Source: Fragilaria crotonensis
Lineage: Eukaryota > Bacillariophyta > Fragilariophyceae > Fragilariales > Fragilariaceae
Assembly: GCA_022925895.1 (NCBI GenBank)
Contig: JAKSYS010000518.1
Span: forward strand, 1-44,739
DNA length: 44,739 nucleotides
Reading direction: 5' to 3'
In this document: piece after piece, positions 7,153-39,500 of the stretch
Layout of the letters: each line of letters starts with the position of its first letter
How positions within the stretch are numbered: the stretch's first letter is position 1
Program-made: the position numbers and the translations under genes
The notes under the pieces: generated by a model
Seen by the model: only the letters and a program-made list of their open reading frames with translations
What the model was told of the DNA's origin: nothing
Databases searched by the model: none

Positions 7153-7836
7153 GCGCCGCTGCTGTTTTCTGGAACATCGGGTAAATGGCAGTTTGATCTT
7201 GATCAAAAGTTGGATTATCTTATATGCTCGTAGAGTAGGGTTAAAAGGATTTCCTTATTCCTTGATCTCTCACGGGCCAATACAGTAGTATAATTGTCAT
7301 ACGAGTACTGGTACTAGTACGACTACTTTGTTGTAGTATCATGGCGATCATGGCCATCATGGCCATCATGTCAGTACTCGGAGTGATGGAATCTTGGTTG
7401 ACTGTTGCGCCGCATTCCACTATGCTGAAGAATTTCAAATCGAAGTATCGCTCCATCGCTCCGAGTCCCTGTTACTTGTTACTGTAGTACCAGCTAACAA
7501 GTACTGTAGTACTCGAGTACCTCTTCTCAGAGAAGTTCCGAGTTCCGAGGCGTCCAACCGTAATATGTCATACTGGTACCAGTACATGTACTCTGTACGA
7601 TCGGATCCCATTTGAATGCAGTGAAATCAGGTCAATCATCAATCATGACGTCGTAGGACGAAAGAATCACGTATCATGACGTCGTAGGACGGATGACTTC
7701 ACGTACTTCATACTTACGGTCACACAGTACGCCAGCATGACACGGGACACGGGACAGGGGACTGGTTCCACATATGTCCGTTGGAGTTTTCGATATTTCT
7801 CCTACACTGGCGTATCGCATATCATATATTCATACT
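7153..7836. other. Intergenic with GTAC cluster
   Basis: Positions 7290-7605 are dense in AGTACT, GGTACC-like and GTAC palindromes, with a short ATGGCCATC-type tandem repeat near 7340-7370. A direct repeat (ATCATGACGTCGTAGGACG) occurs at about 7643 and 7675. No gene is seen. Confidence 0.5.
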
Positions 7837-8355
7837 CTCAGGCGCGTTCTTAACTCAGCAATTTTCGGGTAGGAGGGTAGGATGATTTTTCGGTTAAATT
7901 CGTTTTTTGACGTTATTCGACCGTAAAAACCCGGAAAAGATGGTAGGAGGCAATTTTGCATCCTACGGTAGGATGAAACAGGCGTGGAGGCTTTTTTCAT
8001 CCTACCACATACAACGTGACGTCGTCACATTGCCCTGCATTATTTATTTCAAAAAATCAAATCTGAAGATGTACATGCGGAAGTACCAATGCTCAGACTC
8101 TTCTTCGCACTTTACATAGGTGACCTTGAGAATGAAACACGAGTTCTTCGTCACACATGATAGATTTTTAATTAGGTAGAAACAAGGTCGTTTTCCTAAG
8201 TAAATAAAGTTGGATGAGAGGACGGAAAACTGAGTTGAGAATGGAGAAGAGTAGGATAAAAATTTGAGCGTTATAATGGTGTTATCAACTCCGTTGCCTC
8301 CTACCATCCTACCAGCATCCTACCCGAAAATTGCTGAGTTAAGAACGCGCCTCAG
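7837..8355. mobile_element. Foldback/MITE element with 5-bp target duplication
   Basis: Inverted termini of about 33 bp (GCGCGTTCTTAACTCAGC...) lie at 7842-7874 and 8318-8350, flanked by CTCAG direct repeats at 7837-7841 and 8351-8355. The interior repeats the TAGGATG/CATCCTA motif, including an inner hairpin near 7964-8008 (GGTAGGATGAAA pairing with TTTCATCCTACC). No transposase frame is present. The superfamily cannot be assigned from the TSD length alone. Confidence 0.7.
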
Positions 8356-9219
8356 AGACTTAGTACTTGTACTGGAGTACTGTACCTGGTATTTCTTAAC
8401 GCCTTGAAGTGCACCGCCGAGTTTATGTGCGTAGTGCGTAGTATATTCTGTAGAGGCAACCGTTGAACGACACAGAAACTTTAGGAATGTGTGATACGTA
8501 TGCATTGTTGTGATAATGGTACAGTACCAGTAAGAATATGTACAACAAGGTATGTTGGCGAGCATTCACGAAGTTTCTATTACTTGTACCTGGTACGAAA
8601 ATGAAATACGGGCGAGGACGAACATGTTACGGAATAGTACCAGTGTACCAGTACGACCTTTCCCATCAATTTAACGGCACGTATATAAACATATATACAG
8701 TATGTTACGTAAGCGAAGTGGATGGGAGCGCGGTCACAAAGTCACAATCGAGTACCAGTACCTGGTACCTGGTATCATACCTCGTATGCATATGCAATAT
8801 GCACATGACGAAGTCGACAAATCTATGATATCCCTGTACTGCGTACTTGTACCGTGAATGTCATACCAGCAGCAACTGGATCGGAATGACTACAGTACTC
8901 TACTACTACAGTACGGTAGTAGAGTACTACAGTACCTGGTACGTCTGATCGACGTACTGTACCCCTGTACCTCTGTACTTCGTAGTTTTTTCCGAAGTAC
9001 GGTAGTACTCCAGTACCTGGTAAGTATCATTACACAATAGAGTTTTACAAGCCGAGAACTTCGATTTTTTTGTTTTGGCAGGACGAAACCAATTGCATAT
9101 GTCGTGACCGAGACTCCAAGCTACAGGCTACGACGAGGTATCACAATCAATCTAAGAGTTGAGCATACAATCGCTCACTGTCGAGGGTCAGTCACCCCGT
9201 GTCACTCATTAAATTGAAA
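8356..9219. other. Intergenic with dense GTAC cluster, promoter side of LRR gene
   Basis: Positions 8365-8400, 8515-8660 and 8750-9025 are packed with GTAC palindromes, including repeated CCTGGTACC-type units. The last cluster ends about 195 bp before the ATG at 9220. No frame here looks coding. Confidence 0.5.
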
Positions 9220-11733
9220 ATGGCGGAGGACCGCAGTGTTCACTCGTTCGCTGATGACGATTGTAGCTCAGAATCGGACACCCAGCGAAGGCGAACATCT
9301 CGATTTGATGTCGGTTATGACCACGAGGGTGAAACCAGTCCAGCTGGATTGGTGTTGTTGGCGTCGCCCATGGAAGACCATGCGCCAGACGCTCATATGA
9401 TTCGCTCCTTTGATCGCTACGACCAAGGAAGTGAACGGTTTGATGATGAAATCGATGCGCCGATGTCGCGTGAAGAAGAGCAGTTAATTCGAGAAATTGA
9501 GCACGATCAAAGGGTGGATGAAGAGCTTGGGCGAAAGTTGACGCGGGCAGCGTTGCTCAACTCGCCTCTTCTCATGGCAGCAACTTCTGAGGTAGTCAAG
9601 TCGGGAGGAACTCAGGGGGTTCTATTCTCCTATGGAAACCGCTACACCATCATTGTCGAGAGGGACGTACAGTACTTTGGAAAGCAGAGATAACTACGGG
9701 AGCGACTCATCTGACCTTGATCAAGACACAAATGAAGATGATCTTGTGTTTGCAGGAAGGCAAGATATTTCAGACAAGGATCAAAGTGGTCCACTTGACT
9801 TTGATGAATCTATGGACCACACAATGGCTGGGGGAAGCAGCCGAGCGGTGCGCTTTCGAAGGCACCTTTGTATTATTGGCTGGACAGTCGCAGTTCTGCT
9901 CGTAATTTCACTCGTTGTTGTCTTAGGAATAAGGCAAACGACAAGGAGTAGAGAACTACCGGGCACCGTCGAACCGTTTGGTGCGCCATCATCTTCGATC
10001 AATCCTTCCCTAACCCCGAGCGTGTCGCCGCGACCAACTATTACTGCGCAACCAACTGTTTCTTCTTCTATGGTGCCTTCTGAAACGCCCTCAAGGCCTC
10101 TGAGAACGACGTCACCGTCGATGGAACCAGAAACACCGTCTTCGGAGCCGACCTATCAAACCCTCATCCCTACAAATCCGCCATTTGAGCCTTCGCCTTT
10201 GCCCACTTCGTTCAATGTTTCCGCGCCGACGTCTCAACCTTCTCAAGCGATACTGGCACCTTCATTAGTTCCGACAACCTTGCCATCATCTCAATCGCCC
10301 GATAAATCATCGTCAACCTCGCCCTCTTCTCCCATAACTTTGGAACCGATATTGTTCCCAACGCCATTACCGTCTGTCCAGCAGACAACACCATCATCGC
10401 AACCTCCTCAATCACCAACGACATCACCAAACAAGGCTCCCACTACTTCGCCTTCGTCTTCGCCAGACGATGCCAACCGCCGAGCTGATATCACATCGTT
10501 GTTTGTTTCAATATCCGGTGCGATTGCGCTGATGGATGCTCGATCGCCTCAGTACCAGGCTATGCAGTGGATTATTGACGACGACCCGTTGATGCTGCTG
10601 GCAAACAACACCCCAGCAATTATCCAGCGCTATGCTTTAAGTACCTTGTACTATGCAACGTCCGGAGATACTGCCTGGTTATCCTGCGGGCCTCCAAGTG
10701 GATCTTCCCCTTGTAGCACTCAGCTACGTCGCTTCTTAAGCGGCGCTCCCGAATGCATGTGGCTAGGGGTATCGTGCGATTTTAATAAGGAAATCACTGG
10801 TATAAACATTCGTAAGTGCCCTTTGTGATAGCCAGCCGATTGTTGCCTGTGCTATTATCTGACTCACCACTCCAATCAGGTGGGAACGGTTTAAACGGGC
10901 AACTGCCTGCGGAGGTTGGCGAGCTCTCTCTTGTATCGTCGCTGAGTTTCGGTGGGAATTCACTGTACGGAACGATTCCAACCAACTTGGAATACCTGAC
11001 TCTCCTCCGGTTTCTCATCCTCAACGATAACAAATACTCGAGTACCATACCGACACATCTTGGGAGCCTGGCTGCGCTTTCTTACCTGCACCTTGGGAAC
11101 AATCTTTTTTCAGGTACCATCCCGTCGGAAATCTTTGTACCGTCTTTGGAACACTTTGATGCCGGGTATAACAGACTTTCTGGAACCATACCTATCACGG
11201 CATTCACAATTTCAGACAATTTGCAGCACATTGATATCTCCAACAACAAGATATCAGGAGCTCTTCCCTCGGGGTTGGGGGATTTAGTGGCGCTGAACAC
11301 ATTTTCAGCTGTCAACAACAGCTTTACGGGGACTTTGCCAGGAAGTATCATTAGTGATACCTTGGCGACATTAAACATCGGAAACAATCGATTGCGCGGA
11401 ACACTCCCGCCAGAGATATACATGTTTGGATCCTCATTGACGTTCCTCAACCTGGGTGTGAATAGCTTTCAGGGTACCATTTCACCTCGGTATGGAGAAA
11501 TGGTACGGCTCCAAACCCTTGTCTTCTTCTTCAATGGACTGACCGGAACTATTCCAACGGAACTTGGTCAGTTGACAAGCCTAGGAGTGCTTCATCTTGC
11601 CGGTACGAATTTACAGGGCACAATGCCTGATGAAGTATGTAGTCTGACGGAGCGTAACCTGAGAACCTTAACATCCGACTGCATGGGAAGCGATGCAGCG
11701 GTTCAGTGTTCTTGCTGTACCTTCTGTTATTAA
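9220..11733 (+). CDS. Diatom-type membrane LRR protein
   Basis: The parts in order are an acidic cytoplasmic N-terminus (9220 onward), a single membrane segment after RFRR (about residues 187-209), a long Pro/Ser/Thr stalk of PSxxPS units, then a Cys-containing cap (QRYALSTLYYATSGD, CMWLGVSC). About nine plant-type leucine-rich repeats (NxLxGTIPxxL) follow, and the protein ends in a Cys cluster (CSCCTFC). This is a diatom LRR receptor-like layout with no kinase; it is probably a type II surface protein for adhesion or sensing. The intron at 10812-10879 (68 bp, GTAAGT...CAG, phase 1) restores the first repeat. A frame change near 9600-9690 needs either a second intron (9600-9687 keeps frame but has a weak GTCGGG donor) or an indel. 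With that intron the protein is 785 aa. Confidence 0.8.
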
Positions 11734-12342
11734 AAAGCTAGCCAAGGCGAGCGCATACATAGGACGGTGGGAAGATAGAGCTCTAGATTTCTACAGCATA
11801 GCGCCACGCATTTGGATGTCCCTATTGAGGCGAAATATCTACGACTTCTTCAATGACGATACATCTTCCATAGGGAACACACTCAACCTAACATCCCAGT
11901 AAGTACAGTACTAGAATGACGAAGACGACACGGAAGCCCTCAGGTGTTGACTTGCTTCGCCTAGCCCATCTTTTGACCACGGTGTGGCTTCAGAAATGTG
12001 AGTTCGCCGTAGGCAAATGATAAATGGAGTGAATCAAGTCCGACACAAAAGCGATCTTGTCTGCAGCTCCTTGGAAGTGTGATTTAAAGTGGGGCTTTTT
12101 TATTTTGACCCATCAGGTGTCGGCTGAGATCGTGACGCCCAACGACAGTCGTGCATTACAGGGCGCAAAGTTTCAGCAGAGCGGTTATGGATAGAGAAAC
12201 AGTATCGCCCAGTTGTTATGGATCCCTCGATCTATCAGTTCTGCGCCGTCATGAACGTGGCATGGCGAACTACTCGTAGTCAGCGAGCTAACCATCGTTC
12301 ACGCGAGAGCGAGCGATTGCTAGATTCCTCATCACCAGGACT
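11734..12342. other. Intergenic, convergent gene ends
   Basis: Lies between the 3' end of the LRR gene and the 3' end of the WW-UIM gene. No supported feature was seen. Confidence 0.4.
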
Positions 12343-14074
12343 TTACGGAGATCGATTTTCCGTTGGACTTTGTGGAGATCGATTTTCCTTGGGACTTCTC
12401 GGGAACCAATTCTCCGTAGGGCTGCCAGTCGCCTGGGTTCGAGGGTTAGGTGATCCTGGCCGATATAAAGCCTCTTTGGTGTTTCTATCGCGACTATCAC
12501 GCTGCAGTTGCGAGACAGAAGACATCGCAAGCGGTTCGTCCTGATGTGATGATGTACGAGCTTGTGCTTGGGCAGTGCTTCCAGGCATTCGGGGATCGCT
12601 CCGGCTCCACTGTATATCCAAACGACGAGGCGTTCGTTGTTTCGAGAATGAATATTCATCCTTGTCGGCAAGAAGTACGCTTTCTAAGCATTGGAGGCCA
12701 GCACAATCATTCGTTGTAGATTCTGGAGGCGACTGGTGCACAAGACTGCTGAGAATATCGGCGCAGTAAACATCAGTAGCAACACCTCCAGCTGGCGTTT
12801 TTCGATCTCCCCAGGCGCTCTTGAAAGCTCCAATAGCCGATGCCTCTGGGCGATCTTTCAATTCAGGAGGAGACATCGCCAAGCTTTCCTCCATTGCTTT
12901 AGTGAGCTGCTCTTCTTCCGTCATTTCTGATGCCTCGGGCATGGATGCTACTCCAGTGTTTGTCCTAGGTGGCGAAACATCCAACAGGCTCAAGCTCAGA
13001 GCAATTGCTAACGCTTCCTGGTCGTCGTGCGAAAACTGATAATGGACAATAGAACCGTCGTCTACAGACTCATAAAAATTGACGTCAGATGGCGGATCAG
13101 CTCTAGGCTTCGTGCCCTCCGATTGAAGTGACAAGTGTCCATTCTGGAGATGACCATTTCGCCGTTGGGTTCCATCCCAGGCAACAGAGCGATGCCTCTG
13201 GTGATCAGGAGATGCACTTCCCTCTTTTGCTGAGATTTCTTGAAAGCCATGACTTCCATGACGCCCCGACGAGCCCCTGTGTTTTCCCCGTGAATTCGAA
13301 CGATTTCCATCGCTGGAAGAGCTACGCAGGCGCGACGATGACGATTCAGGTCGTGCGTTGTTTGTCAAAGGATTGGCATTTTCGGCCTCCAAAAGACTAA
13401 GGGCCATGGCACGTTCTAGGTCAGCGTCGTGGTAGTGGGCACTCGAGCGATTTTTGCTGGACATGCTACTCACAAGCGCTCGTTGCATGGCAGGATCCAA
13501 GTGTTCGTCATACATCGGTGAATTTTTGTGGTCCCTCTTACTTCGGCCAAGAAAACTATCAGGACGGTGTTGCATGCGACTTTCGGCAGGCGGAGTTGAC
13601 GCATCGCCTTTCGATCGCCTGAAAAATCCGCCAAAACCCCTTTTTGATTTCGGAGTCGATTGTTCCACGTCTGGCACGGTCCCTATGGCAATTTGCATTT
13701 CTTGTAATTGAATCTTAGCCATTTTGCGCATCACATCCGACGCATTCACCACGTGGGACGCTCCTGAGGGAGGTTCATCCCAAATTCGCTCATGCGTTCG
13801 TTGGTTGGAAAAGAAAGATCGGATAGTGAGTTTGCCGGCCAACTCGCAAACTATATCACGGGAATCAAAGGGTGAGATCGTGAAGGAAAGGTGAAAGAAC
13901 CAAGAAAAAGGCGTCGGCGTTGTCCCTACCTGCCAAACTTTCCTGCCAGGTATCACCATCCGCATTCGTAGGACCCGTCACATGCGTCGATCTGCGGGGA
14001 ACAAACCCATCGTCTTCAGTGACAGCACTTGCATTGCGGCCGGAATCACCAAGTGTAGAACTTTTTCGTCTCAT
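12343..14074 (-). CDS. WW-like domain plus four UIMs, ubiquitin-binding adaptor
   Basis: Exon 1 is 13930-14074 and exon 2 is 12343-13850; the 79-bp intron has GTAGGG...TATAG ends and phase 1. The product is 550 residues. A WW-like module spans about 40-77: W43, then FFSNQRT at 61-67 and WDEPP at 72-76. The intron splits it, and the Trp-Trp gap is longer than usual. Four ubiquitin-interacting motifs follow near 163-180, 189-206, 322-340 and 358-375 (for example DADLERAMALSLLEAE). The C-terminus is disordered, ending in SPxENRSP repeats that show as imperfect 27-bp DNA repeats near 12341-12420. WW domains bind Pro-rich partners and UIMs bind ubiquitin, so a trafficking or protein-turnover adaptor is likely. 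ATG at 14074 is chosen; no upstream in-frame ATG was seen. Confidence 0.75.
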
Positions 14075-14500
14075 TGCGTCGCAACAGCACTCGTCTTGAG
14101 CTCCACACTTGCGCACCCGATTATCCTTCACCAGTGATACAGGAATTCAGCCTAGATCACGCCCTTCTCACGCCTTGATGTTGCTCCCAAAACGGCAGGG
14201 ACTCTCGACGCCGAGTGCGACGAGGTAAAGGTCGAGGTATGTGAGAAGGTGTGCTCGCATGACGTCTTGGCGTGTTGTGGTTGTTGGTACTAGTAGTACC
14301 TTGTACTACAGGATGTACGTGTGTACAGTATACGACGAGGACAGTACCAGTAGTACTCCGCCAAATCGGAGAGTTTTTGAATTTGATCGAAGGAACTCCA
14401 AATACCCCAGTCTACTAAAGTGTACTGGAGTATGATGTACTAGTACTTCGTACCTGGTATCATATGAATACTAGCTCCAAACGGGTTGCAAGTGTACCTC
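14075..14500. other. Promoter side of WW-UIM gene, GTAC cluster
   Basis: A dense GTAC/AGTACT cluster at 14286-14462 begins about 210 bp upstream of the WW-UIM start codon. No gene. Confidence 0.5.
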
Positions 14501-16300
14501 CGATAAAAATAGAACAGCTCCAATAGAAAATTGGGTCAAATCGTAGAAGCCAGTACAACTCTACACTATGACCATAGTAGAGCATGTATACTCGAGTACA
14601 TCGGTCCTTCCTATCACAAAAAACTGCGCGGCGGAATACTCATCGTGACCACAATGACGCAACAATCAACAATAATTGAACTCGACCTATCGGTACTTCG
14701 GATACTAGGTCTTGTCATCATTCAGGCAATCCTCAGCAGTTGTTTGATTCCTTTCAGATTGGTACTGATACGACAAAATTCCGCTTCGGGACAGTAAACG
14801 AGAATGATGTGATGATGCCAGTGAGGACGCTGGGGTCTAACATGATTTAAAGAAAAGCAAGAATGCAGCCCGCGTTCTGCGCTCCAATACTTTTGGTACG
14901 AGTGGCACACCGCAGCCCCCGTAATCATTAAGATTTGCATCCAGGTTGGTTGTCTCCAGACGAAGTGCTATCCAGCAGTTCACAGTTGGGACAATTGGCT
15001 TACCGTCGAGACGTGGAAACGAGAAATCTACAGCGCGACAGCGCATCCCCAACCCAAAGCAGAAACAGATGCAGCAGAAAGCAGCCCAGAAGCTTTAAGA
15101 TGCTCAGTATTGTAGAAAGCATGTACCCCAAAGGGCGTGATGCTTTTGCATTCCACAGCACTGAAGACACAGATGAGGCAAGCGCGCCTGGGTGTTTCTT
15201 TGAGCTTGACCCTGTCAACACCAGATCAATTGATGGCTACCAGATTGCCCACGGTGCAGGCTAAGGCAAGATCATCATGGGATTTTGTGGGTAAACGCGC
15301 TTGTAGTATTCTCCGCCCAGAAATAAGTGATGCCCGATTGGTGCAGGTGTTCACGCGGCAGAGATTGACAAAGACACTGCTGTTGTGACTTTGTTTCCAT
15401 TGTTACATCTGGAATAATGAACCTGCCGCACGTTGCGAAGCTCCTACTCCAGACACTGTATGGGGACTTGTGCGGGTACACGGGGCAACTCTCCGACGTC
15501 GACTTGCAACAATTGCATGGAAATCAAGTATTGGTTGTAAAGAGTCTGTTCTTCAATACTACGTCCAGTAAACCCCGACATTAGACGAAGTGACAGGAAT
15601 GACAGAGATTTCCCTGGAGAACTAGCCAGACTTGGGATATCATCAATTGGTTCTGCGGATGGCAATGTCGAACTTGCTTGACGGTGTTCTGCAAGGTGCG
15701 GCTTTGATGGCTCACATTTGGGCAGATGGAAAGGTAGACCTTGAACGCTTGCTGGTTGACATGACAGAAGGATAAAAACAACAGAGCGGCATCAGAGATG
15801 GAAAGAAAAGACTCTGATGGCTTGCTGGTGCTCGTGGTAGTCCTCGGATTCTCGACGTGATGACTGATGATGACGAAGAGGACTGAAACGACGAACGCGT
15901 AGGAAACAAGCAACTCGAGGGGAATATGGACCACCACAACGGGAGCGCAACAAACACACACATACACCAGTTGAAGCGAAACGCAGATCGAATAGCAACA
16001 GTAAATGATAACAACAATTGTTGGCAGGAACACGCTTCTGTCTCACATCTTCTGCCTCTGCACTGTATGACTCCGAGTAGCACGGATCTGATACCTGATT
16101 TCAATTGGATATGTCTCCTGTAGAGATATACTAATTTTCTACGAGATGACCATATTTCGGATTTCAGCGCTGTCTTTTTTACCGGAGGTACACTTGCAAC
16201 CCGTTTGGAGGTCGTATGAGGAACGAGGAACATCCGGGCACCCGACAATGTACATTATACCAGGAAGGTCCGGCCCAAGCACGTTTCGCGATTAACAAGA
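14501..16300. other. Gene-poor stretch with weak coding remnants
   Basis: A plus-strand frame at 14935-15264, with a second frame on to 15388, has protein-like stretches (SFKMLSIVESMYPKGRDAF, then FHSTEDTDEASAPGCFFELD) but no ATG at its start and no known domain. It could be a decayed gene. The region 15400-16300 has no convincing frame. Confidence 0.25.
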
Positions 16301-16339
16301 TGTACCTTAAGGATGTGCATTCGAGCTGGCAAGGTTAAG

Positions 16340-16605
16340 CAAATGTCAGCAGATTCCTTTTTCGTCAGCAAATGTCAACAGATTTGCTTTTCGTCAGCGA
16401 ATGTCAGCAAACTTGATTCTCGTCAGCAAACGTCAGACGATGTCAGCATCACCGTAGCTTTTGTACTGGGAAAAACTCGTTTTCGTCATCATATGTCAGA
16501 AAATGTCAGCAGATTCGATTTTTGTCAGCAGACGTCAGCAAATTCGTTTTTTGTCAGCGGATGTCAGCAGATCTGTCTTTTCGTCAGCAAGTGTCAGCAA
16601 AACGA
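16340..16605 (+). repeat. Minisatellite, about 30-bp unit
   Basis: Imperfect tandem units built around TCGTCAGCAAATGTCAGCAG, about eight in number, interrupted by a non-repeat insert at about 16440-16490. Because the unit length is near a multiple of three, the plus strand stays open and reads like (S/N)xFxVSxCQQIC, but this is a by-product of the repeat and not evidence of a gene. Confidence 0.75.
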
Positions 16606-16745
16606 CGATGACGCTGGCATATCCAGTTTAGCACCAGCCAGACACAGCACGGAAATGATTTTCGCCTCCGGCCAGCGTGAATTCGACCTTGATTCACGAC
16701 TTAAGCGTGTATTGCCGGACCTTCCAGGTACTACTAGTTGCTCTC

Positions 16746-16790
16746 ATATATACATACATAGATACATACATACATACATACATACATACA
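16746..16790. repeat. (TACA)n microsatellite
   Basis: About ten ATAC/TACA tetranucleotide units with minor interruptions (one GATAC unit). Confidence 0.9.
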
Positions 16791-16800
16791 CCATACACCT

Positions 16801-18480
16801 CTATTCCTGGCAAAATGCTACTGTATATGGGTACTAGTATAACCCATATAGTGGGAAGGGTTTTTTTCAAAGAGTAGTGGGACGCCAAACAAAATTGTCG
16901 TTTTCACATGTAATCCATCCCTGAAGGCTGCCGATTGTGCTACTTTGGTGGTAAGTCTTTGATTAAAGATACTAGCCACAAACCTTCCTCAGCAACAGGA
17001 AGCACCCAGCACCAGTGGCTCATGGGTGGCCATGGTGGGAGAATAGTAATAGATGAGGTGGAGGAGGGTTATAAAAATCTACCACTTTTCTGATAGTGGA
17101 TAGCTACCTTGATTGTAGTCACCTCAATCACATCTCATTTGTCATCAATGCTGTTCCTCATAGTTACTAATGGCTGCTGCCAAATCCCAAATAAAGAATG
17201 TCGTACTACGATATGAGATCCATGTAAGTGCATGTAGCTACCACCTGTTCCCAGTGTTGTATGCATAGGCTAGGAGTAGAGTACATATGTTGCAACATTG
17301 AAGGTCCGGAAATGACGGTTTCAAATCTGGAAGCTAGTATTTGAAATGCTCAGGCGGTGTCCATACAAAAATTTGATCCAAGTATCCAACTTCCAGCAAG
17401 AACAAGGGCGAATAACCGCCGGTTAATTTTGGGTTCAGTTTTTTGTCACTCCATGTGGTGTCCATAAAAAAATCACATCAAAATATCGAAATATTGTACT
17501 CCCAAGAAGTTCACCTGCTTGACACCAGTCAATGGCGAGTACAAGTGCTACTACTAGCTAGCTAGTACTGTACAAGAAGGGTGAACTACTCGGCGTAGGC
17601 CACAACGCCACAACTCCTTCTGCATGATTGCTATGCTATGATATCGGATACTCTCCTGGAAATGGTGATCACCTTCTTGATCAAAAGAAGACTTGTTCAT
17701 AATGACCGCCACTATTTGTAGGGTCCGGGAAAGGAGAGTGTTACAGTATGGCTCTGCGTCCAACCCTCAGATTCACAACAATGATGAAAACATGTACTCC
17801 AAGTACTCGCCAAGCTCTCGAGTACTCGAGTACCCAAGTACCCAAATTAGCTAGTTAGCATCATGAGCGAGTGAAGAAGGAGAAAGTATGGGTGATGTCG
17901 TATGAATTGAAATTCATTAGATGTTGGCTCATTGTCACACAGGCAAATCCATTCCTGCTGATTAGATCCTGGGCCTCATGCGCGCCCTGTGCCCAAATTC
18001 CTCATTCATAGGGTTGTCAATTTCTAAGTCTTTTTGATTCTTCCGTTTGCCTCCTGCTCATATTTGTGCTCCTGAATGTGTCAAGAACTACTTCCCAACA
18101 TGTGTCCTTCATCACTTTTGCCAAGTATGACCATGTTGCGACAGTTGTTGTGAGCAATGATTTGCAAGTGGGAGTTGCATTGGTGCTGAGACTTCAATGT
18201 CATTCCTATCAGTGGAATGAAGGCTTTGAATGCTCACTCCCACAACATCACTCTCTAACTTGCTTCTTTGCAAAAGGAGATCTTAAAGATTCAATCAAAC
18301 CTGGATTAAATTGGTTCTTTCAAAATGAACCCTTTAGAAATAGCTCATGAGTTACACAAACTGAATTACAAAAGCTCTACCGTAGGTCTATGTTTGACCG
18401 ATCCCAGATTTTCACAAACTAGTACGCAGTGTGCAGACTTGATCACGCAGGTTGTACTTCGAATCCTTATTGCATACTCC
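16801..18480. other. Intergenic, probable decayed repeats
   Basis: A/T-leaning sequence with related segments GGTGTCCATAcAAAAATTTGATC (about 17356) and GGTGTCCATAaAAAAATCACATC (about 17457), and a GTAC cluster at 17535-17840. Short open frames, such as 18066-18350, have no recognisable domain. Confidence 0.35.
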
Positions 18481-19028
18481 AGTATGAATCTGTATGGAGT
18501 ATTGTTGTACAAGTACTGGAGTACTACTTTTACATTGTACTGTTGGACAAGTACTGCCACGTGGTATGCATATCATAATAATGGGAAGCATTCACGCTTC
18601 CACTCCGCGTCACATTACCAGGTCCTACAGTATAGTACAAGGTACCTGGTACCTGGTACTCCGCACTCCGCACTCAAAAGTATCGTGTACAATTGGCTCT
18701 ACTAGAGTAGTAGCAGTCTAGCAGTACATCGATTATTGTACTCCAGTACTTACATGCATTGACGACGGCTTCCGGTGTACGGTGTGGATTACTTGTACCA
18801 GGTACCTGGTACAAGTACTGTCCATCGACCATCGTCCTATGTGTACGTCGAACAAAACCAACCAAGAGCGCATGCCGCATGCCGCCAACGCGATGAGCAG
18901 CATTTTGTGGCCGAGACTACCTACTTTAGGCGAATCAGACCAGCGCGGCAACTGCCTTGCCATCATACCACCAGCATTCCTGCAACTCGTCCACAACCAG
19001 CATCGCTACCAGGTACAAGTTCTGCGAA
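18481..19028. other. GTAC-rich promoter side of capping-enzyme gene
   Basis: GTAC palindromes are concentrated at 18480-18550 and 18620-18830, including GGTACCTGGTACCTGGTAC. The last ends about 200 bp before the ATG at 19029. Confidence 0.5.
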
Positions 19029-24168: not shown

Positions 24169-24817
24169 TCGATGACACGTTGCAGGCTAGAAAGTCAAGG
24201 TGTTCCCCTTTGTTTAGGGTGACAAGATAGATGATCTAAGCCACCCTCACCGCCAGATACAGCATTCCTTCGTCGTCCCCGAGCATTGTATGTTCATAGC
24301 ATTGTAGCAGTACTACAAGTACCTGGTACCTGCCATCGTGTTCTCACATCACTCGTATGACATAATCTCGCAAGTCATAAAACGTCCTACTACTACCGGT
24401 AGTAGGTACCGGCAGTATGCATACACCAAACACGGAGTAGCTGGTACTGCATACCAGTACTCTACTACAGTGGGCTTAAAGCTCAACGCTCAACTACGAC
24501 AGTATGTTAGCCAAATTACGGGTGCTGGTAATACTGTACTGGAGTAATCAGTAATCCAGAACACCGATCTCCGCAACCCGCAGCAAGGGTATGGGATACT
24601 GTACTGTTGTACCTGGTACTACGGAGTACAGTGGAGGGCGAGTACCAGATAGACCAGTACCGGTACAACTGACATCCAGTGCAACGATATGACAGTGCAA
24701 CAGTGCGCGTGGACAACGCAACAGGCAACACACATCAGACACGATTCGGGCGACAATGACAAACAATGACGACTCAGTAACTCAGGGTGGTAACAACGAC
24801 AACCACAACTTGAGATA
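24169..24817. other. GTAC-rich promoter side of TTL-like gene
   Basis: GTAC and GGTACC-type motifs are dense from 24305 to 24665, ending about 155 bp before the ATG at 24818. No gene. Confidence 0.5.
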
Positions 24818-28988: not shown

Positions 28989-31088
28989 TACACAGTACAG
29001 AATTGGTTGGAGCCGTGTGCTCTCATTTTAGAAAATGATCGAGCTGGATTCATGTGGTCCTCATTTGTCAATTGAACTGGTCGTCAAGGCTATATAATGT
29101 CTGACAAATAACAGGACAACATAATGCATAACTCTCATCTCCTCACTATCCTGGGTGTTCATTTGTCTGACAGTCGCATTGTACAATCATCGTCGTGCCA
29201 GTAGTTCTAACCGCCGAGTGCAACACCTACAGTAAAAGTCTTCGAATGATATCATGTTCTTGAACACGCGTCACTCCTTGGAAATTTTTGGAAAGACTGC
29301 TCTCCTGAATTGTGGAACGAGCAGTAGTCGAAACGTCAGTAAGAGAAAGGCGGAGTTATGTCCACGTGTCGCCAATGACCGTTGACAAGTTATCATAACA
29401 ACATTGGGCGTTCTAACATCTGGCACCCTCTCAACTCTCAACCCACTCAACTGGCATTTCGACTTTCGACCATAGACGTCACGGCTTCAGGAGTCGTACG
29501 GATCAGAGATGTCTCCTTGCCCAGTCATTCGTTTCGATCTGTGCACATCACACTGACGAAAACAACCGTGTTGTGCGTTCGACGCACTTCACAAGGTATC
29601 TGTAGTTACTGCGGTAGTTAGAATTACTAATAAAATAAGTAATATATGGTGCAGGTTCTGAGCATGAAGTCATTCATCGACACTTTGGTTAGAATTGTCG
29701 ATTTTGACGTCCGGCATAGTACTGTAACATGCACGTTGACTCGTAGTACCACCTAGCTAGTAGTTGAGACTTTGTGAATCATGTCCAATGTCCAATGTCA
29801 AGTTATACTTCACTCTCCGAGAACGACGAAGTCATAGGTGGGAGCCCGTGTATGTCCCCTAATCAAGCCGGCCATGACCTGCAGTAGTGTACGGGAGTAC
29901 TGAATTCTACTCAGTACTGGTACAGTGTACGGTGTTTCCATCCTCAGAGGTGCAGACTGAGATTCGTAGGTAAAGTTGATGTGTAACTAAATTTGCAATA
30001 TATAATTTGTAAAGTTGATTTTTTTAGAAAAGCTCGATCGGCTCGATTAGGGGACATACACGGCCTCCCATTAAAATTAAACTCCATTGGGATTGCCCTG
30101 TTTTTTAGTTATAACTCTTCATATAGAGCTTATCCTACTAAAACATACCCGCTCAGGTTTGACTTTCTGTCGTACAATGTACTGGAGTGCTCCAGTAGCA
30201 ACGACACTACCACAGACTCGATGACCAAAGGAGGGGTATTGTATGAGCATACTTTGTACTGGTCCTAAGGACTCGTTCGCTGGTACTACAGTACATGTAC
30301 CAGGGTACGCCCAGACTCCGCGCTCCTGCTGACCTGGCAACTCAAGTTCTCCGAACTTGCTGAGTACAAGAACCTGCTATGTTCATACACATATAATCGT
30401 GAAATTTATGATCGACTAACTTACGATAGTACTGACTACTAGAAGTACTGGCAGAACCGAGTATGTCATACGACTACCTGTTTTGAGGACTGCAGAACGT
30501 AGCACATGAATAATAAATGCAGTTGTACTGGTACAATTATTACAAGAACGAGGTATTCGGAGTACGGTTTGCACGTCGAAAGACTGAAAATCTATGCTAC
30601 GGGGTGGTTTATGGTCTTTTGATGATGGATCATGGATCAGACATTGTCACATCGGGACATAATCGCAAGTGGGGACATCGACATGTTTCAGAGTGGACGG
30701 AATAATTGTACCTTGTCATAGTATTTTTCTGCTTGCGGTACTTCCTGCTTTCGACCAAAAGTTGTTCGTATTGCTTTTTAGAGGAATCTTGCGTTCCTGT
30801 ATCATATGCACATAATAGGTTTGCATGTCTACTAGTACCAGGGACAGTCGTAAACTCAACACACGACACCATACTCGTACCCGTTCAAAGGCCGCTTGCT
30901 TCTTCGGTTTACGAACACCTCGTGTTAATCGCTCTACACTTCGAATATTCCAGTACATCGAGTAAACCGCATGTTGTTTTCCGCTCATCCGAAACAACGC
31001 AGCTCCACGTCAATTATTAAGGCTATAGTACGCATCAGATTGATCAGTTCAACAGCTACACCCTATCACTCCCCAGGCAGAACAACAG
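28989..31088. other. Long intergenic stretch with GTAC clusters
   Basis: No gene is supported. GTAC clusters lie at about 29715-29745, 29885-29930, 30170-30300, 30430-30545 and, sparsely, 30830-30960. The last ends about 130 bp before the GPCR start. Holds the inverted-repeat element noted separately. Confidence 0.45.
29839..30070. repeat. Inverted-repeat element, 31-bp arms
   Basis: Arms 29839-29869 and 30040-30070 are reverse complements at 29 of 31 positions (TGGGAG..CGTGTATGTCCCC core). The 170-bp interior is A/T-rich and non-coding. No clear target duplication flanks it, so it may be an old MITE or a chance-kept hairpin. Confidence 0.5.
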
Positions 31089-34000: not shown

Positions 34001-34382
34001 TAGCACACTCAGAGGTAGTTTTGTGGATTCTCTTGCCAAGTCCATGCGTTTCAGCTCAGGGGCGCTATCATTGTCCACAGAAGGTGGCGATGGAAGCGTC
34101 GCTGACACTGTGGGGGGGATTCGAGTGACGCACAATCCAAGAGTAAGTAACGATGACGCTATGCACCTTCCCTTGACTCAAGTATTTCTCTGACAACTAT
34201 GTTTATCGTCAAAACAACAGTCGATACGAAATTTGCAGGTTTCCGGCGGGGTCGAGTTTTCGCGCGCTCAGTTGGAATATTTAGAGGATTTGCCGCAGCG
34301 CATCGATAGTGTCCAAGAAGTGAGCGAAAATAACGAGGACAAAGATTCCGAACCGGCAGAGAGGACTATTACTTGTCCATGA
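31089..34382 (+). CDS. Class C (GABA-B/mGluR-like) G-protein-coupled receptor
   Basis: Exons 31089-32073, 32178-33132, 33201-34142 and 34221-34382; introns of 104, 68 and 78 bp are GT-AG (a second in-frame acceptor for the last lies at 34238). A signal peptide (about 17 aa) and a periplasmic-binding-like Venus flytrap domain are followed by seven membrane spans starting GRAVGYTLMGIVILGSCAAF. TM3 carries the class C cysteine (ACMAAPWLYVSGAVIAFSSLLAKT); ESRYIGIAM precedes TM6 and FIPK ends TM7. The Ser/Glu-rich tail is about 190 residues with a helical end. Such receptors bind amino acids or small ligands at the cell surface; the ligand is unknown. A 1-base frame break lies at about 32244-32260 in otherwise continuous homology. 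The start is ATG 31089 (or 31092). Confidence 0.88.
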
Positions 34383-34596
34383 TGTCATTTGATGGTTTTG
34401 TGACATAAAGCAATATTTTGAATCTACGTAATAATAGTCAAGGACATTATATGCACTTCTGTGGCTTTATCTTCGAAGTTATGGGGACGCTCACAGATCG
34501 CGGTCCCTGACGAACATAGAAGGGAAACGAGAAGCTACACATTAGCAAAATCAGCGATGAAGCGAACCAATAAAAATGCTGAATGGTAATGGAAAC

Positions 34597-35421
34597 TCAC
34601 GAGCTGCTGCCTCGTCCCATCCATCGGCTGAAACAGTGAGCGATAATCATGGCCTGTAACTTGGCACATCCTACAATCACGGGTTGCAGAATTCTAGCCA
34701 TTGCTGCCAGAACTATCGAAAGTCCTGCCGATCCACCCGGTAAAAAGGAAATCAGGTACCACAGAAGTGCCACAAGTTGCATCCCACTAGATCCCAGTAC
34801 AAGGACAAATCCACTTGCACCGCCGGCATGGAAGGTAAAGTAAATCGTCATGAGCATAGTCCCAAGGTATACGGTGGTAAAGACGAGGCGATCGGGACTG
34901 ATCATGCCCTTGATGTGTGCCATAGGACCCTTTAGGATTCCAAAGGATGCCATGAACGTGAGGCTACCAAATGTGAAACTGAGTGCAAATTTTTGAGGTC
35001 TGACAACAATCATTGGGAGTCCGACAAAGAAGGCCAGCGCGAAGAAGAGCGCCGAGAGAAAAAGTAGGGCACAAAATGCCTGTCATGTACGGGGAAAAGT
35101 GAGCACACCTGATGTGAGATATATTCTTGTATACCATGTGATGCCAATACGGTGCCGTTGGGTGTATGTACATAGCAAACAACCGCGGGTCGTTCGAAAA
35201 TGTGACAAATAACTCACTTGAAATCTTTGTTGATAGTTCATTCCCATGACGCTTTGCGGCAACTGTGATTCCAGGGACGCCCTCATACCGGAAAAGGTTG
35301 GCAGCTCTGCATTTTCCCATAGTGGCAGGGTTTCGGTGGACAACCAGCTGCCACTGCTCGGAGTGGTCTCTCCAGCATCTTCTGCCTTCTTCTCCTCGTA
35401 CCATTGTCCGAACGATGACAT
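34597..35421 (-). CDS. SFT2-family Golgi vesicle transport protein
   Basis: Exon 1 is 35218-35421 and exon 2 is 34597-35079, with a 138-bp intron (GTGAGT...GACAG, phase 0); the product is 228 residues. A soluble N-terminus of about 65 residues (QWYEEKKAEDAGE) is followed by four membrane spans: CALLFLSALFFALAFFVGLP, then KFALSFTFGSLTFMASFGIL with GPMAHIKGM, then LVFTTVYLGTMLMTIYF, and LVALLWYLISFLPGGSAGL. GPxAHxK and the WYLxSFxPGG ending mark the Got1/Sft2-like family, which acts in retrograde endosome-to-Golgi vesicle fusion. The stop sits inside a possible GTGAGT donor at 34593-34598, so the last residues could differ. It converges with the GPCR gene; the ends are 214 bp apart. Confidence 0.88.
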
Positions 35422-35659
35422 TATGATAGGGCTGTGATTTTTACAGAAGTGTGGGGCTTGATCGTTGGCTGATTTCGATAAAGAAGTTGGGATGGGAATG
35501 CCATTCAATGCGATATAATCATATGTTAACTTTTGCTGATCGAGTATTCCTGGAATGCGAAGTGGGACAGTGTGAGTGCGTGAGAGATCCACCTTAAAAA
35601 TGCGAATCACCTTCTGTACGACTAGTAGTATTAGAGAGATCCTCTTTTTATTGTTTACA

Positions 35660-36367
35660 GTACCACCTAAAAACTGCTTAGAACCAATAATTTAACGCAT
35701 GTTACGACTCAATTTATCCATTCCTTCAAGCTTCGCACTCTATTTCCGTTCCGTTACAACTTCTTCTCCGTATAGTTCTCCATGTTACAATTGAATCAAT
35801 CTTGTACTGGAGCAGATATTCATCAAGAAATGGAACGATTTCATCGCCTCGTTTTGAGATTATTGGTTCTAAGTGATACATAAAAATTTATACATGCATG
35901 AAGAAAAATTTATATGTGCGCGCGTAATTTTTTTCACACGTTCGCCCAAAATCGATGTAATTTTCGGTCTACTGTTACGCTGGTAGCCACGTGTGTCTTG
36001 TACCACCAACGTTGGACCACAAGAAAAATACGGCGCGGTATCGTGTGTCACGCGTTTCTATAAAAATCGCAACACTGAAAAAAATACTCCGAGCATTCAT
36101 GGGAAGCCCACCTCGATGTGTTAAAATCGTGAGCTGGATTTGAGCTCAATTGCCAAAATACAGTGTGAAATATTGAAGCGACCGCTCACTCAACCTCACT
36201 TTCCTGCAAGTATACGAAGGCTGTAGGATGAATAAAGGAATGAGGTTGTCATACATATTCTTTGGGAAAAACATAATTTGAGCAACTTTTGTGTAGGAGA
36301 TATGGATTTTAACGCGTTTATTGGTTCTAAGTGATATTATTGGTTCTAAGCAGTTTTTTGGTGGTAC
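35660..36367. mobile_element. Terminal-inverted-repeat element with a doubled right end
   Basis: TIRs of 31 bp lie at 35660-35690 and 36337-36367, identical but for one base (GTACCACC...AACTGCTTAGAACC). The outermost CCACC is flanked on both sides by TA, which would fit a mariner-type TA duplication, but the flanking GTAC makes this ambiguous. The TTATTGGTTCTAAGTGATA part of the end recurs at 35862-35880 and again directly inside the right TIR (36318-36336), so the right end is doubled. No transposase frame. It lies about 240 bp upstream of the SFT2 start. Confidence 0.65.
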
Positions 36368-38315
36368 GGAACCCGTAACCTTACGAAGATTTGGTGTAAA
36401 TTTGTTCCAGTAATTTACAGTGTAAATTTATGTCCTCTTTTTTGAAAATACAACATGAATTTCACTACTCAGATTCCTTTGACATTTCTCGTATCATTCA
36501 ACAAGATTCCGTTAAAAACACTTGGACTCGGACTCACATGTACTACACTGAGATCATGCAACAGCAAGTATGCATACATCGACTCTATCACTCACTCTAT
36601 CGGCGTTGTCCTATCTCTTCGTACGTAGTATAAAAAGTAGGATCTTGATTAACTATTTATCACAACTGCTACTCTAGTTCCTTTGCTGTTTTCCTGCCCT
36701 CTGACAAATGCTGCTGCAAAATTCTGAACATGTCGGCTTTTTGCTGCTTTTCAATTGCCTGTCCTGTTAAACGTCCTTGATTTGAAGATGCTTGGTTCAA
36801 GTCAATCTGCTCCTTCTGATATGCTCCTTTGTGTGGCTTTGTGCCTCCAAGGTGTGCTCGCCCACGCCTTCGTTGATTCAAAAACCAAAGAAATCGCCAC
36901 TGCCTGCGATAAGTTCAGCTGTTTCTATGGAAGTACTCGGAGTGCTTATCATCCACAAGACCGACCTCTTGCATCGTTTCCTTCATTGGATCAAAACGTC
37001 ACTTTTCAAACTTGACTGTCACCGAAGTACTTAGGCATGATCGTTATCTCCTCCTTGTTGCTTTCAGAGCTAAGCCACATACAGTGGCCGGTGCGTAGCC
37101 AGCGACATCCATCTGCCTTCGGTACAAGATGTCAAGTTTCTTGTTTCCAGTGCACGCCACCGCAGATAGATGTCGTTTCTTCCGTTGAATCACCCGAAAC
37201 AAGGGCGATCGAATGACCCACATGCGAACATCATCGTCGAGTTCCGATGAGGACATCGTACAAGATACAATATTTGGTGTTCGCAAACTTCCAGTAACAT
37301 GCAAAGCGCCGCCGCCTAAGTCAGAGCGCGCCGCAAGATGAAAAGTCTACAAACTACTAGAACGTACGCTAATATACACATATTATTTTCCACGTGGAGG
37401 TACTTTCCGAACAAAGTAAACACGTGGAACGGAATTTTGTTTAGTGTCAAGTGGTAGGGAAATTCAAGCTTCAAATTTACCAAAGGACCCCAAAATTCAT
37501 GAAGTTAAGGGAAAATCGAATCTCAACTTTACAAAGCTGAGGACCCAGAACCGGTACTGGGTCCAGAGTTCTGTAATTTTGTACTGTAAAAAGTCAAAAG
37601 AGGAGCTCTCTATTTGTTTAGTGCGGTGCACTGCTCTTGCAACAACCGTAGTTATAGAGCACAGAGGTACTGTACTGTAGAAACCAGGCAGAATTCAGCG
37701 GTACTGGTGTACTACATTTCTACAGTATTCGATACTCCATATCGTACTGCTACTCCTTCATTTGAGTACAAATCGTACTCGAGCAATGGAGTGCACAGTA
37801 TACAGTATACAGTACTTGGAGAAAACAACTCCGAGTCGAGCATCATGGTATCATGGATGATGGTCGACCAAAGAAAACTCTGCAGTGGGGATGAAGGATG
37901 AAGTGCATGAGACATGAAGCCCAGTATCAAATCATCTACTCGAGTATCATAGTATCGAAACCCTTGTTGACGCTCAACTTCAACGTGTAGACTGTAGACT
38001 GCCAAGAACTTACAAACCAGCCCCCGGAATTGTGAGAACATATTCGTTCAAGTACTCCGCCGTCAGAACAAACGCTATCTAATGGTTGTTGGATGCTTTT
38101 GCAAAATTCTGAAAGCAGCTTGTCAATAGACAGGGCTACCGTAGCTTCTTTCAGACTAATACGTTGGTAGCGACGAGTCTCTTAAGTGTATTGAAGCAAA
38201 TCTATGTAGAGAGACCCTCTTGGTATATCCCAAAGCTCAGAGTACGTGATGTATCTCGGTATCACAGTACGTTGGTAACTTTTGAACGGAACACAGCAAT
38301 TAACACAAAGTGCTT
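36368..38315. other. Intergenic with possible coding relic and GTAC cluster
   Basis: On the minus strand, 36669-37020 reads in pieces as protein-like sequence (FDPMKETMQEVGLVDDKH; KADMFRILQQHLSEGRKTAK) broken by stops, and 37044-37304 is another open piece. These could be parts of a decayed gene; I recognise no family. A GTAC cluster lies at 37550-37815. Confidence 0.25.
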
Positions 38316-39191
38316 TTATTTCTTGGCAGCCGCAAGTTCCGCGCGCATGGCATCAATGGTCTCCTTGTACGCCTCCACGGTACGCGGTTCCTTAAGTATG
38401 GCAGATCCAGCCACAAACATATCGACACCTGCTTCGCAAACTTCCTTGATGTTGTCAACCTTGACACCTCCATCAATCTCAAGGCGGCAGTCAATGCCAG
38501 CTTCGTCAATCAGTTTTCTAGCCTCGCGTGCCTTGTCCAAAGTGGCTGGGATGAACGCCTGGCCTCCGAAGCCTGGGTTGACAGACATGAGAAGGATGAT
38601 GTCGCTTATCCATGACAAACTTGGCAACATCAAGGAGGTGGCTGGGTTGAAGACTAGTCCCGCCTTGCAACCTCCAGCCTTGATGAGCTGAAGGAGCGGT
38701 CAACGTGATTGGTGGCTTCAGGGTGGAATGTAATGTATGAAGCGCCGGCACCAATGAAATCTTGGATTGCGGCGTCCACAGGAGAAACCATCAAGTGAAC
38801 ATCGATTGGGGCGGTGACACCGTGGTCACGGAGGGCCTTGCAGACCATAGGTCCGATAGTGAGGTTGGGAACATAATGGTTGTCCATGACATCGAAGTGA
38901 ACAACATCAGCCCCAGCTTCGAGGACATTGTCAACTTCTTCACCAAGACGAGCAAAGTCAGCGGACAAAATGGAAGGCGCAATCAGGTAGTCCTTTCTCC
39001 CCAGACCATTTGACGAGCGGATGATGCTCTTGTTACTGAAGGCTGACATACACGACCAGAGGGGACAGGCAGGGTGAGGATACGCCGGCACATTAAACAT
39101 GTGATCAGAGTTCTAAAAACATGGGTGATCCACTCACGGTAACGAACGCGGACGCGGACGCGAGAAGGGTGGCAGCGACGGCAAACTTCAT
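38316..39191 (-). CDS. RPE: Ribulose-phosphate 3-epimerase, plastid-targeted, frame-broken
   Basis: Exon 1 (39138-39191) encodes [18 protein letters not shown], a signal peptide ending in the diatom ASAF plastid motif. Exon 2 holds the TIM-barrel: [46 protein letters not shown], then [10 protein letters not shown] and [10 protein letters not shown]...[12 protein letters not shown]. The conserved metal and catalytic residues (HFDVMD, HLMV, DGG) are present. It interconverts ribulose-5-P and xylulose-5-P in the Calvin cycle. Three small indels between about 38698 and 38606 shift the frame, two of them cancelling, against clear homology. The intron donor is GTGAGT; the in-frame acceptor is an AAG at 39029-39031, while nearby CAG acceptors are out of phase. 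It is either a recent pseudogene or indel error. Confidence 0.85.
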
Positions 39192-39500
39192 CTTGATAGA
39201 GCGTATGTGGGTGGGTGGTGGCCTTTGTCAACGAGTAGGTCTTAAATCCACAACAAAGTACACACGTACGTGTCCTCCAGAGACGTCCGCATACCGATGT
39301 CGTCATCTGCGGAAGATTCAAGAGTGCATTTGAATACCAAAATACTGTAGCAAGGGGCTCCAGTACTTTCGCTTGATTTCTGTACAGTGTGTTCGAAGTC
39401 GTGTAGGTGCTTGCTAGTTGTGGTGTCGTACTGTAGAACTGTAGCGCTTCAGAACGTTGACAGTACGAGCTCGAGTATCTGGTTTCTGGTACCTGGTACT
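39192..39500. other. Promoter side of RPE gene, GTAC cluster
   Basis: GTAC palindromes at 39361-39500, including GGTACCTGGTAC just before the Crypton-like array, lie about 170-310 bp upstream of the RPE start codon. Confidence 0.5.

What the first reader, a model, noticed from the sequence alone, without database searches (positions are those of the whole stretch)
7290..39500. GTAC-palindrome clusters at a set distance upstream of seven genes
Dense runs of GTAC palindromes (GGTACC, AGTACT, CCAGTACCTGG) are confined to intergenic DNA. The near edge of a cluster lies about 200 bp upstream of the LRR ATG, 210 bp for WW-UIM, 200 bp for the capping enzyme, 155 bp for the TTL-like gene, 170 bp for RPE and, more sparsely, 130 bp for the GPCR. 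For the histidine-rich gene it is about 190 bp once the MITE and its duplication are removed. Convergent or downstream intergenic gaps lack them. This could be a promoter-linked element (nucleosome-free region, factor array, cruciform) or a dispersed repeat that inserts upstream of genes.
Basis: partly seen in the sequence, partly recalled or inferred. Interest (0 to 1): 0.7.

Follow-up and report, generated by a model that had tools for sequence, protein, structure and literature searches.

The report
Diatom promoter arrays of GTAC sites
In this diatom genome, short GTAC sites spaced 6 to 9 bases apart are packed into the stretch 150 to 600 bases upstream of about half the genes sampled, which looks like docking sites for an unidentified regulatory protein rather than hairpins or jumping DNA.

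Summary
The window is contig C468 of a 62-Mb diatom genome. The GTAC clusters are real, and the pattern holds outside the window. In an independent 200-kb stretch, GTAC is the tetramer most enriched upstream of genes relative to 3' flanks (rank 1 of 136): 4.4/kb in the last 150 bp before the ATG, 10.6/kb at 150-600 bp. Sixteen light-harvesting gene promoters elsewhere show the same onset.

The unit is not a long palindrome: arms are not extended beyond GTAC. Sites prefer 6-9 bp spacing and avoid 10-11 bp; genome-wide pair counts agree (9,626 per spacing at 6-9 bp, 4,379 at 10-12). Neighbouring spacers are no more alike than chance. Nine of 80 array chains lie in alignable repeats, no more than ordinary intergenic DNA (11 of 80).

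Best reading: homotypic binding-site arrays for an unidentified, probably oligomerising, promoter factor. Known GTAC-binding families (SBP, AP2) were not detected, by weak tests. Function is inferred; conservation could not be tested with power.

The parts
7305..7730 (.). GTAC array, distal part of the LRR-gene promoter
   Evidence: 14 GTAC in 7300-7839; 6-9 bp chains at 7305-7320, 7501-7520, 7576-7598
7840..8353 (.). MITE-like inverted-repeat insertion splitting the LRR array; GTAC-poor
   Evidence: matching inverted ends, 2 GTAC inside
8363..9016 (.). GTAC array, proximal part, LRR-gene promoter; near edge 205 bp from ATG 9220
   Evidence: 30 GTAC in 8354-9016, seven chains of three or four sites, distance
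14287..14599 (.).
   Evidence: 14 GTAC; no Pfam hit for this ORF
18422..18846 (.). GTAC array, mRNA capping enzyme promoter; nearest pair 212 bp from ATG 19029
   Evidence: 21 GTAC, distance; capping enzyme domains
24310..24666 (.). GTAC array, TTL-like gene promoter; nearest pair 153 bp from ATG 24818
   Evidence: 14 GTAC at 150-700 bp; TTL domain
29889..30741 (.). Looser GTAC array upstream of the class C GPCR (ATG 31089); its chain 29914-29930 lies in a repeat also found at L042 and C108
   Evidence: 20 GTAC; 9 at 150-700 bp, nearest pair 556 bp; repeat matches; receptor domains
39258..39728 (.). GTAC array upstream of RPE (minus strand); nearest pair about 67 bp from an ATG read by eye at 39191
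   Evidence: 14 GTAC, sequence, RPE domain
37554..37815 (.). GTAC cluster downstream of RPE, an exception to the upstream rule unless an unrecognised gene starts here
   Evidence: 10 GTAC, in a gap classed convergent; the Got1/Sft2-like gene starts about 2.1 kb away
42244..42359 (.). GTAC cluster upstream of the minus-strand gene at 41524-41795
   Evidence: 6 GTAC, nearest pair 458 bp

Best explanation
The clusters are homotypic arrays of binding sites for an unidentified nuclear DNA-binding protein that marks promoters in this diatom. Shown: GTAC is concentrated about 150-600 bp upstream of predicted start codons, sites lie preferentially 6-9 bp apart (2-5 bp between them) with diverse but non-random spacers, 10-11 bp is avoided, and 31 of 69 upstream regions in an independent contig carry five or more. 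Inferred: one homodimer sits on each self-complementary GTAC, neighbouring dimers touch at 6-9 bp spacing so that doublets to quintets bind cooperatively, and the bound array keeps the region just upstream of the transcription start open and sets the competence of the promoter. The 0-150 bp low zone is read as 5' UTR plus core promoter.
For: Position: C108 alone, the 65 of 70 genes for which an ATG was placed: 43 GTAC in 9,727 bp at 0-150 bp, 271 in 25,608 bp at 150-600 bp; ratio 2.37, bootstrap 1.58-3.86, highest of 136 tetramers; 69 upstream against 37 3' regions, mean 10.2 and 3.7/kb, Mann-Whitney p = 4.7e-5; 10.9 against 3.8/kb after masking repeats. Window plus C108, 75 of 82 genes: 323 in 200-600 bp against 232.7 +/- 18.7 under rotation, 0 of 2000 as high. 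Light-harvesting genes: 1, 1, 20, 16, 26, 22, 19, 15, 15, 10 GTAC per 100-bp bin over 16 promoters, two of them 99.4% identical copies. Grammar: pooled spacings 6-9 = 72, 71, 59, 35 (jitter expectation 22-24), 10-11 = 11, 11 (23-24), 13-14 = 43, 39. Genome-wide per spacing 9,626 (6-9), 4,379 (10-12), 6,207 (13), 5,374 (14-16), 4,368 (17-19); CATG control 2,924, 2,258, 2,058, 2,411, 2,392. GTACCWGGTAC 3,604 against 73 for the backward control. Adjacent spacers identical in 1 of 32, 1.0 expected. Arrays share short phrases: 31 of 80 chains have a short match covering at least half the chain, against 2.4 when only GTAC positions are kept, as a site with extended specificity would give. Paralogues L030/L031 align only over their last 135 bp (95.6%), yet both carry GTAC (17 and 6 sites). 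A conserved diatom iron-response site lies about 200 bp (150-250) before the ATG (PMC3491386, passages).
Against: No binder is known: SBP and AP2 families were not detected. 10 of 69 C108 upstream regions have no GTAC and 28 of 69 have fewer than three. Some clusters lie outside the zone: 37554-37812 here and C108:65884-70467. Shared phrases could also reflect small duplications. Conservation gave no support: in near-identical copies 2 of 67 GTAC sites differ, like other tetramers (0.4% divergence, no power). No TSS, chromatin or expression data. The gene caller is ab initio and missed at least one gene (Got1/Sft2-like).
Confidence: 0.62

Rival explanations
1. A chromatin or mutational signature: open promoter DNA in this lineage accumulates or keeps GTAC without a dedicated binder, for example as a DNA-modification target or through nucleosome sequence preference.
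For: Position fits a nucleosome-depleted zone; base composition changes near -100; conservation test has no power.
Against: Such a signature has no obvious reason for a 6-9 bp spacing preference with depletion at 10-11 bp, nor for the GTACCWGGTAC excess.
Confidence: 0.14
2. A dispersed or tandem repeat: remnants of transposons or minisatellites rich in GTAC that sit near promoters.
For: CCAGTACCTGG occurs in the 27-bp inverted ends of a roughly 3.4-kb element. 9 of 80 chains align over 40 bp or more to another place, 5 of them elsewhere in the pool, among them 29914-29930 of the window; four lie in a local repeat at C108 66.7-69.2 kb. 44 of 80 chain windows have some non-self match at E 1e-3.
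Against: Chain-free intergenic windows align as often (11 of 80) and the upstream bias survives masking. Adjacent spacers are as different as chance. A 6.6-kb query with two arrays found 40 further matches, 39 to the repeat at 18300-18484 and one an array palindrome matching itself (only 40 of 112 candidates were scored and very common words are skipped). The MITE inside the LRR array is GTAC-poor. The pool is 0.4% of the genome, so low-copy repeats escape.
Confidence: 0.12
3. Cruciform or hairpin elements: the function lies in self-pairing DNA or RNA.
For: Perfect palindromes of 12 bp or more: 29 observed, 10.6 to 13.5 expected upstream, including one of 28 bp. Fold z-scores of six arrays -2.6, -1.3, -1.5, -1.9, -3.1, +0.4 against four controls -1.2, 0.2, -1.6, -0.7.
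Against: Arms around 396 upstream GTAC match no more than composition predicts (0.25-0.29 against 0.25-0.27 at 12 positions). Excess folding is expected of DNA rich in self-complementary words.
Confidence: 0.05
4. An RNA-level element in long 5' UTRs.
For: Arrays begin about 150 bp before the ATG and transcripts were not mapped.
Against: Density is lowest in the 0-150 bp next to the ATG, where UTR is most likely, and GTAC is its own reverse complement, as suits a DNA site.
Confidence: 0.05

Closest known systems
Homotypic clusters of transcription-factor binding sites (general class; recalled)
   Same: Many copies of one short site in cis-regulatory DNA, copy number varying from gene to gene, most clusters not homologous to each other
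   Different: Found at about half the promoters sampled; binder unknown; tight 6-9 bp spacing with 10-11 bp avoided
Heat-shock elements and HSF oligomers (TTC/GAA arrays; PMC11267843, section 15 read, an oomycete)
   Same: Short units in closely spaced arrays read by an oligomer
   Different: TTC/GAA units with a 2-nt gap or none; here GTAC with 2-5 bp between sites
SBP-domain copper-response element (GTAC core; PMC4606839 passages)
   Same: GTAC core
   Different: SBP described there as found in green plants; none detected here (weak test); the window genes are not an obvious copper regulon
ApiAP2 AP2-G site (GxGTACxC; PMC4537280 passages)
   Same: GTAC core; a double GTAC motif is described upstream of the Theileria gene
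   Different: G at -2 is the least common flank base here (70 of 407); AP2 not detected
MetJ and TrpR tandem operators in bacteria (recalled, not tested)
   Same: Self-complementary boxes about 8 bp apart bound cooperatively by stacked dimers
   Different: Bacterial, few operons; no homologue sought
Yeast general regulatory factors Reb1, Abf1, Rap1 (recalled)
   Same: Sites just upstream of the TSS at many unrelated promoters
   Different: Usually one or two sites rather than arrays

Membership tests
Homotypic TF-site cluster | Multiple copies of one motif, clustered beyond chance | tested here: met
Homotypic TF-site cluster | Located in regulatory DNA | tested here: met
   upstream against 3' and coding in independent DNA
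Homotypic TF-site cluster | Not merely a duplicated repeat | tested here: met
   9 of 80 chains in alignable repeats against 11 of 80 control windows; bias survives masking; spacers
Homotypic TF-site cluster | Bound by a sequence-specific factor | not testable with these tools
   needs binding data
SBP copper-response element | GTAC core | tested here: met
SBP copper-response element | SBP-domain protein in the genome | tested here: inconclusive
   0 matches, but the control genomes also gave none
AP2-G type site | Flanks G-x-GTAC-x-C | tested here: not met
   G at -2 and C at +2 are the least or among the least common bases (70 and 72 of 407)
AP2-G type site | AP2-domain protein in the genome | tested here: inconclusive
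   0 matches at E 0.001; control rang in 1 of 14 genomes; a short, diverged domain could be missed
Cruciform or long palindrome | Arms extended beyond the core | tested here: not met
Tandem repeat (slippage) | Neighbouring units alike including spacers | tested here: not met
   1 of 32 identical, 1.0 expected; a local repeat does exist at C108 66.7-69.2 kb
MITE or transposon family | Arrays are alignable dispersed copies | tested here: not met
   not for most: 9 of 80 chains align over 40 bp or more, control 11 of 80; the pool is 0.4% of the genome

The most novel reading that the evidence does not exclude
A lineage-specific promoter-defining protein, with a DNA-binding domain outside the SBP and AP2 families, polymerises along GTAC doublets to quintets at a non-helical 6-9 bp pitch and opens a large share of this diatom's promoters, a diatom counterpart of general regulatory factors. 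It may come from a captured transposase, since a transposon-like element in this genome carries the same CCAGTACCTGG in its inverted ends.
Probability: 0.3. Interest if true: 0.82.

Novelty: new variant of a known kind. Interest (0 to 1): 0.6.

Why it matters
The diatom regulatory sites that I met in papers are mostly tied to one pathway (iron, nitrate, B12: passages; a second motif of the nitrate paper was common to other response types). A site with a clear spacing grammar at about half of sampled promoters would give a handle on how diatom promoters are marked, help predict promoter positions from sequence, and offer a bait for the binder. It is directly testable with a doublet probe or a respaced reporter.

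Tried and rejected
Long-palindrome or cruciform unit: rejected on arm matching, noting the excess of palindromes of 12 bp or more and of folding. Slippage: rejected as the general source. Dispersed repeat: rejected as the general source. My first wording, that array DNA has no dispersed copies, rested (40 of 112 candidates scored) and did not survive a closer test: of 80 chain windows 44 have a non-self match at E 1e-3, 31 with a match covering half the chain, 9 with one of 40 bp or more (5 elsewhere in the pool); chain-free controls give 16, 11, 11 and 8. The 239 genome matches to CCAGTACCTGG partly count an element whose inverted ends hold it; its three scanned ORFs had no Pfam hit. Conservation: two pairs (C77/C86 and C268/C327) differ by only 0.4%; 2 of 67 GTAC sites differ, no information. 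Correlates of array size over 71 genes: none with gap length (rho 0.06, p 0.63); weak with gene length (rho 0.27, p 0.024). SBP and AP2 as the binder: not detected. Literature: in the searches no listed title or abstract opening describes a GTAC array in diatom promoters; lists were capped, and subscription papers and preprints are not held. The second motif (HNS_B) of the Phaeodactylum nitrate paper is not spelled out in the passages seen and could be related. Species not identified; diatom rests on silicon transporters, light-harvesting genes and DUF6824 (its diatom link is recalled).
Full report
What the window is. The window is contig C468 of a 62,107,879-base, 881-contig assembly. It encodes a capping enzyme, a TTL-like protein, a class C GPCR, RPE, an LRR protein and a DUF6824 protein. 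The genome has 19 silicon-transporter matches (best E 4e-193) and 61 matches to light-harvesting proteins, so it is a diatom. The species was not determined.

The observation. The window has 294 GTAC, 6.57/kb. They are clumped: 8 of 223 bins of 200 bp hold seven or more.

Gene calls. To test position I trained a 3-periodic Markov gene finder on the window plus 200 kb of contig C108 taken without regard to GTAC. It gave 12 and 70 genes of at least 240 bp; an ATG could be placed for 10 and 65. It missed at least the Got1/Sft2-like gene at about 34.6-35.4 kb (its start counted by hand), so gap classes are approximate.

Position. GTAC density is 2.45/kb in coding regions including introns. In C108 gaps it is 4.18/kb (19 convergent), 7.49/kb (20 divergent) and 8.37/kb (28 tandem). 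For C108 alone, which is independent of the finding, it is 4.4/kb within 150 bp of the ATG, 10.6/kb at 150-600 bp and about 5/kb at 1-1.5 kb. GTAC ranks first of 136 tetramers both for 150-600 against 0-150 bp and for upstream against 3' regions. Rotation of each upstream region never reached the observed count in 2000 trials for window plus C108. The window is denser than C108: 16-26/kb at 150-400 bp over 10 genes.

A second independent set. Light-harvesting genes were placed by homology, and 1-2 kb upstream of the 16 best-scoring of the 61 matches was fetched. Counts per 100-bp bin from about the domain start are 1, 1, 20, 16, 26, 22, 19, 15, 15, 10. All 16 fetched stretches have at least one GTAC and 14 have three or more; two of the 16 are 99.4% identical copies.

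Distance. The nearest close pair lies at 164-696 bp (10th-90th percentile) in 56 of 75 genes. The constant part is the GTAC-poor first 150 bp, whose first 100 bp have more A and C and less G, as 5' UTR might. RPE, the cluster at 37554-37812 and the 4.6-kb gap C108:65884-70467 (73 sites) are exceptions.

Grammar. In upstream regions GTAC-GTAC distances peak at 6-9 bp, dip at 10-12 and rise again at 13-16. Pooled over 1,432 GTAC from window, C108 and 17 of the 20 loci (three near-identical copies left out; L001-L008 not used), distances 6-9 occur 72, 71, 59 and 35 times against 22-24 after local jitter, while 10 and 11 occur 11 times each against 23-24. Per spacing GTAC has 59.2 pairs at 6-9, 16.0 at 10-12 and 34.2 at 13-16. 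Of the 15 other palindromic tetramers none exceeds 14.5 at 6-9; CCGG, CGCG, CTAG and TTAA show a similar fall from 6-9 to 10-12, but on 9-14 against 2-4 pairs, too few to judge. Whole-genome counts per spacing: 9,626 (6-9), 4,379 (10-12), 6,207 (13), 5,374 (14-16), 4,368 (17-19); CATG gives 2,924, 2,258, 2,058, 2,411, 2,392 (the value at 13 is minus). Chains of three to five sites: 20 in the window, 33 in C108. GTACCWGGTAC occurs at 3,604 places against 73 for the backward control.

What it is not. Arms around GTAC are not extended. Neighbouring spacers are identical in 1 of 32 cases, as chance predicts, and same-length neighbours are no commoner than chance (7 against 8.6). Repeats: of 80 chains of three or more sites, 9 align over 40 bp or more to another place covering the chain, 5 of them at another locus or over 3 kb away; of 80 chain-free intergenic windows the figures are 11 and 8. 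After masking repeat-like DNA (20% of C108), upstream and 3' densities are 10.9 and 3.8/kb. So repeats hold some arrays (29914-29930 in the window; 66.7-69.2 kb in C108) without being their general source. Short matches are another matter: 31 of 80 chains share a 20-40 bp phrase with another array, against 2.4 when GTAC positions are kept and the other bases shuffled. The spacers are therefore non-random across arrays, either extended site specificity or small duplications. Two paralogous light-harvesting promoters, L030 and L031, align only over their last 135 bp yet both carry GTAC (17 and 6). After masking GTAC and 3 bp around it, remaining tetramer enrichments are weaker (ACTG and ACGT 1.5-fold), but some longer words rise, such as AAGGTC 25 against 1, so GTAC is the dominant signal and not the only one.

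Mechanism. A self-complementary 4-bp core suggests one dimer per site. A 6-9 bp pitch with 10-11 bp avoided suggests neighbours contacting around the helix rather than sitting on one face. Variable copy number (0 to 25 per region) suggests graded occupancy. These steps are inferred. The proposed outcome, an open and competent promoter zone just upstream of the TSS, is also inferred; no TSS or chromatin data were available.

Known relatives. Two families are described as reading a GTAC core: SBP (PMC4606839, passages) and AP2-G (PMC4537280, passages). Neither was detected here; the SBP test had no positive control and AP2 domains are short. The AP2-G flank rule is not met. An oomycete binding survey has no GTAC in its main text (PMC11267843, find and section 15).

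Limits. About 0.4% of the genome was read for position; the rest rests on pattern counts. Gene starts are predicted. The conservation test had no power. Repeat tests used only the DNA fetched here. No relative genome was available.

Noticed in passing
L007 1487-1513 and L008 1499-1525 (C15 about 57.7-61.1 kb): A roughly 3.4-kb element has 27-bp inverted ends containing CCAGTACCTGG; paired + and - matches about 3.4 kb apart also occur on C45, C109 and C202, and about 2.7 kb apart on C81 and C120 (listing). Three scanned ORFs gave no Pfam hit.
   Followed up: partly
window 18300-18484: Dispersed repeat with at least 39 copies at 73-77% identity elsewhere in the genome.
   Followed up: no
window 29840-30069: Inverted-repeat element whose ends match L002, and whose GTAC-bearing part matches L042 (88 bp, 81%) and C108.
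   Followed up: partly
L009-L028 joined, C108 66.7-69.2 kb: Diverged local repeat with 66 GTAC in a gene-poor gap.
   Followed up: partly
window 34597 to about 35421, minus: Got1/Sft2-like gene with only sparse GTAC upstream.
   Followed up: partly
G000 C97:29749-33762: One 1,456-aa open frame holding three silicon-transporter domains in tandem.
   Followed up: no
L045/L046 with L047/L048 (C77/C86) and L033/L034 (C327/C268): Contigs share stretches at mostly over 99% identity with insertions, perhaps unmerged haplotypes.
   Followed up: partly
window 38316-39112, minus: RPE is spread over more than one frame, with a break near 38.65-38.70 kb, possibly a sequence error or an intron.
   Followed up: no
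upstream regions of C108 and window: GGGGTTAATTAACCCC occurs three times upstream and once in 3' regions of the sample; AAGGTC is 25 against 1 after masking GTAC.
   Followed up: no
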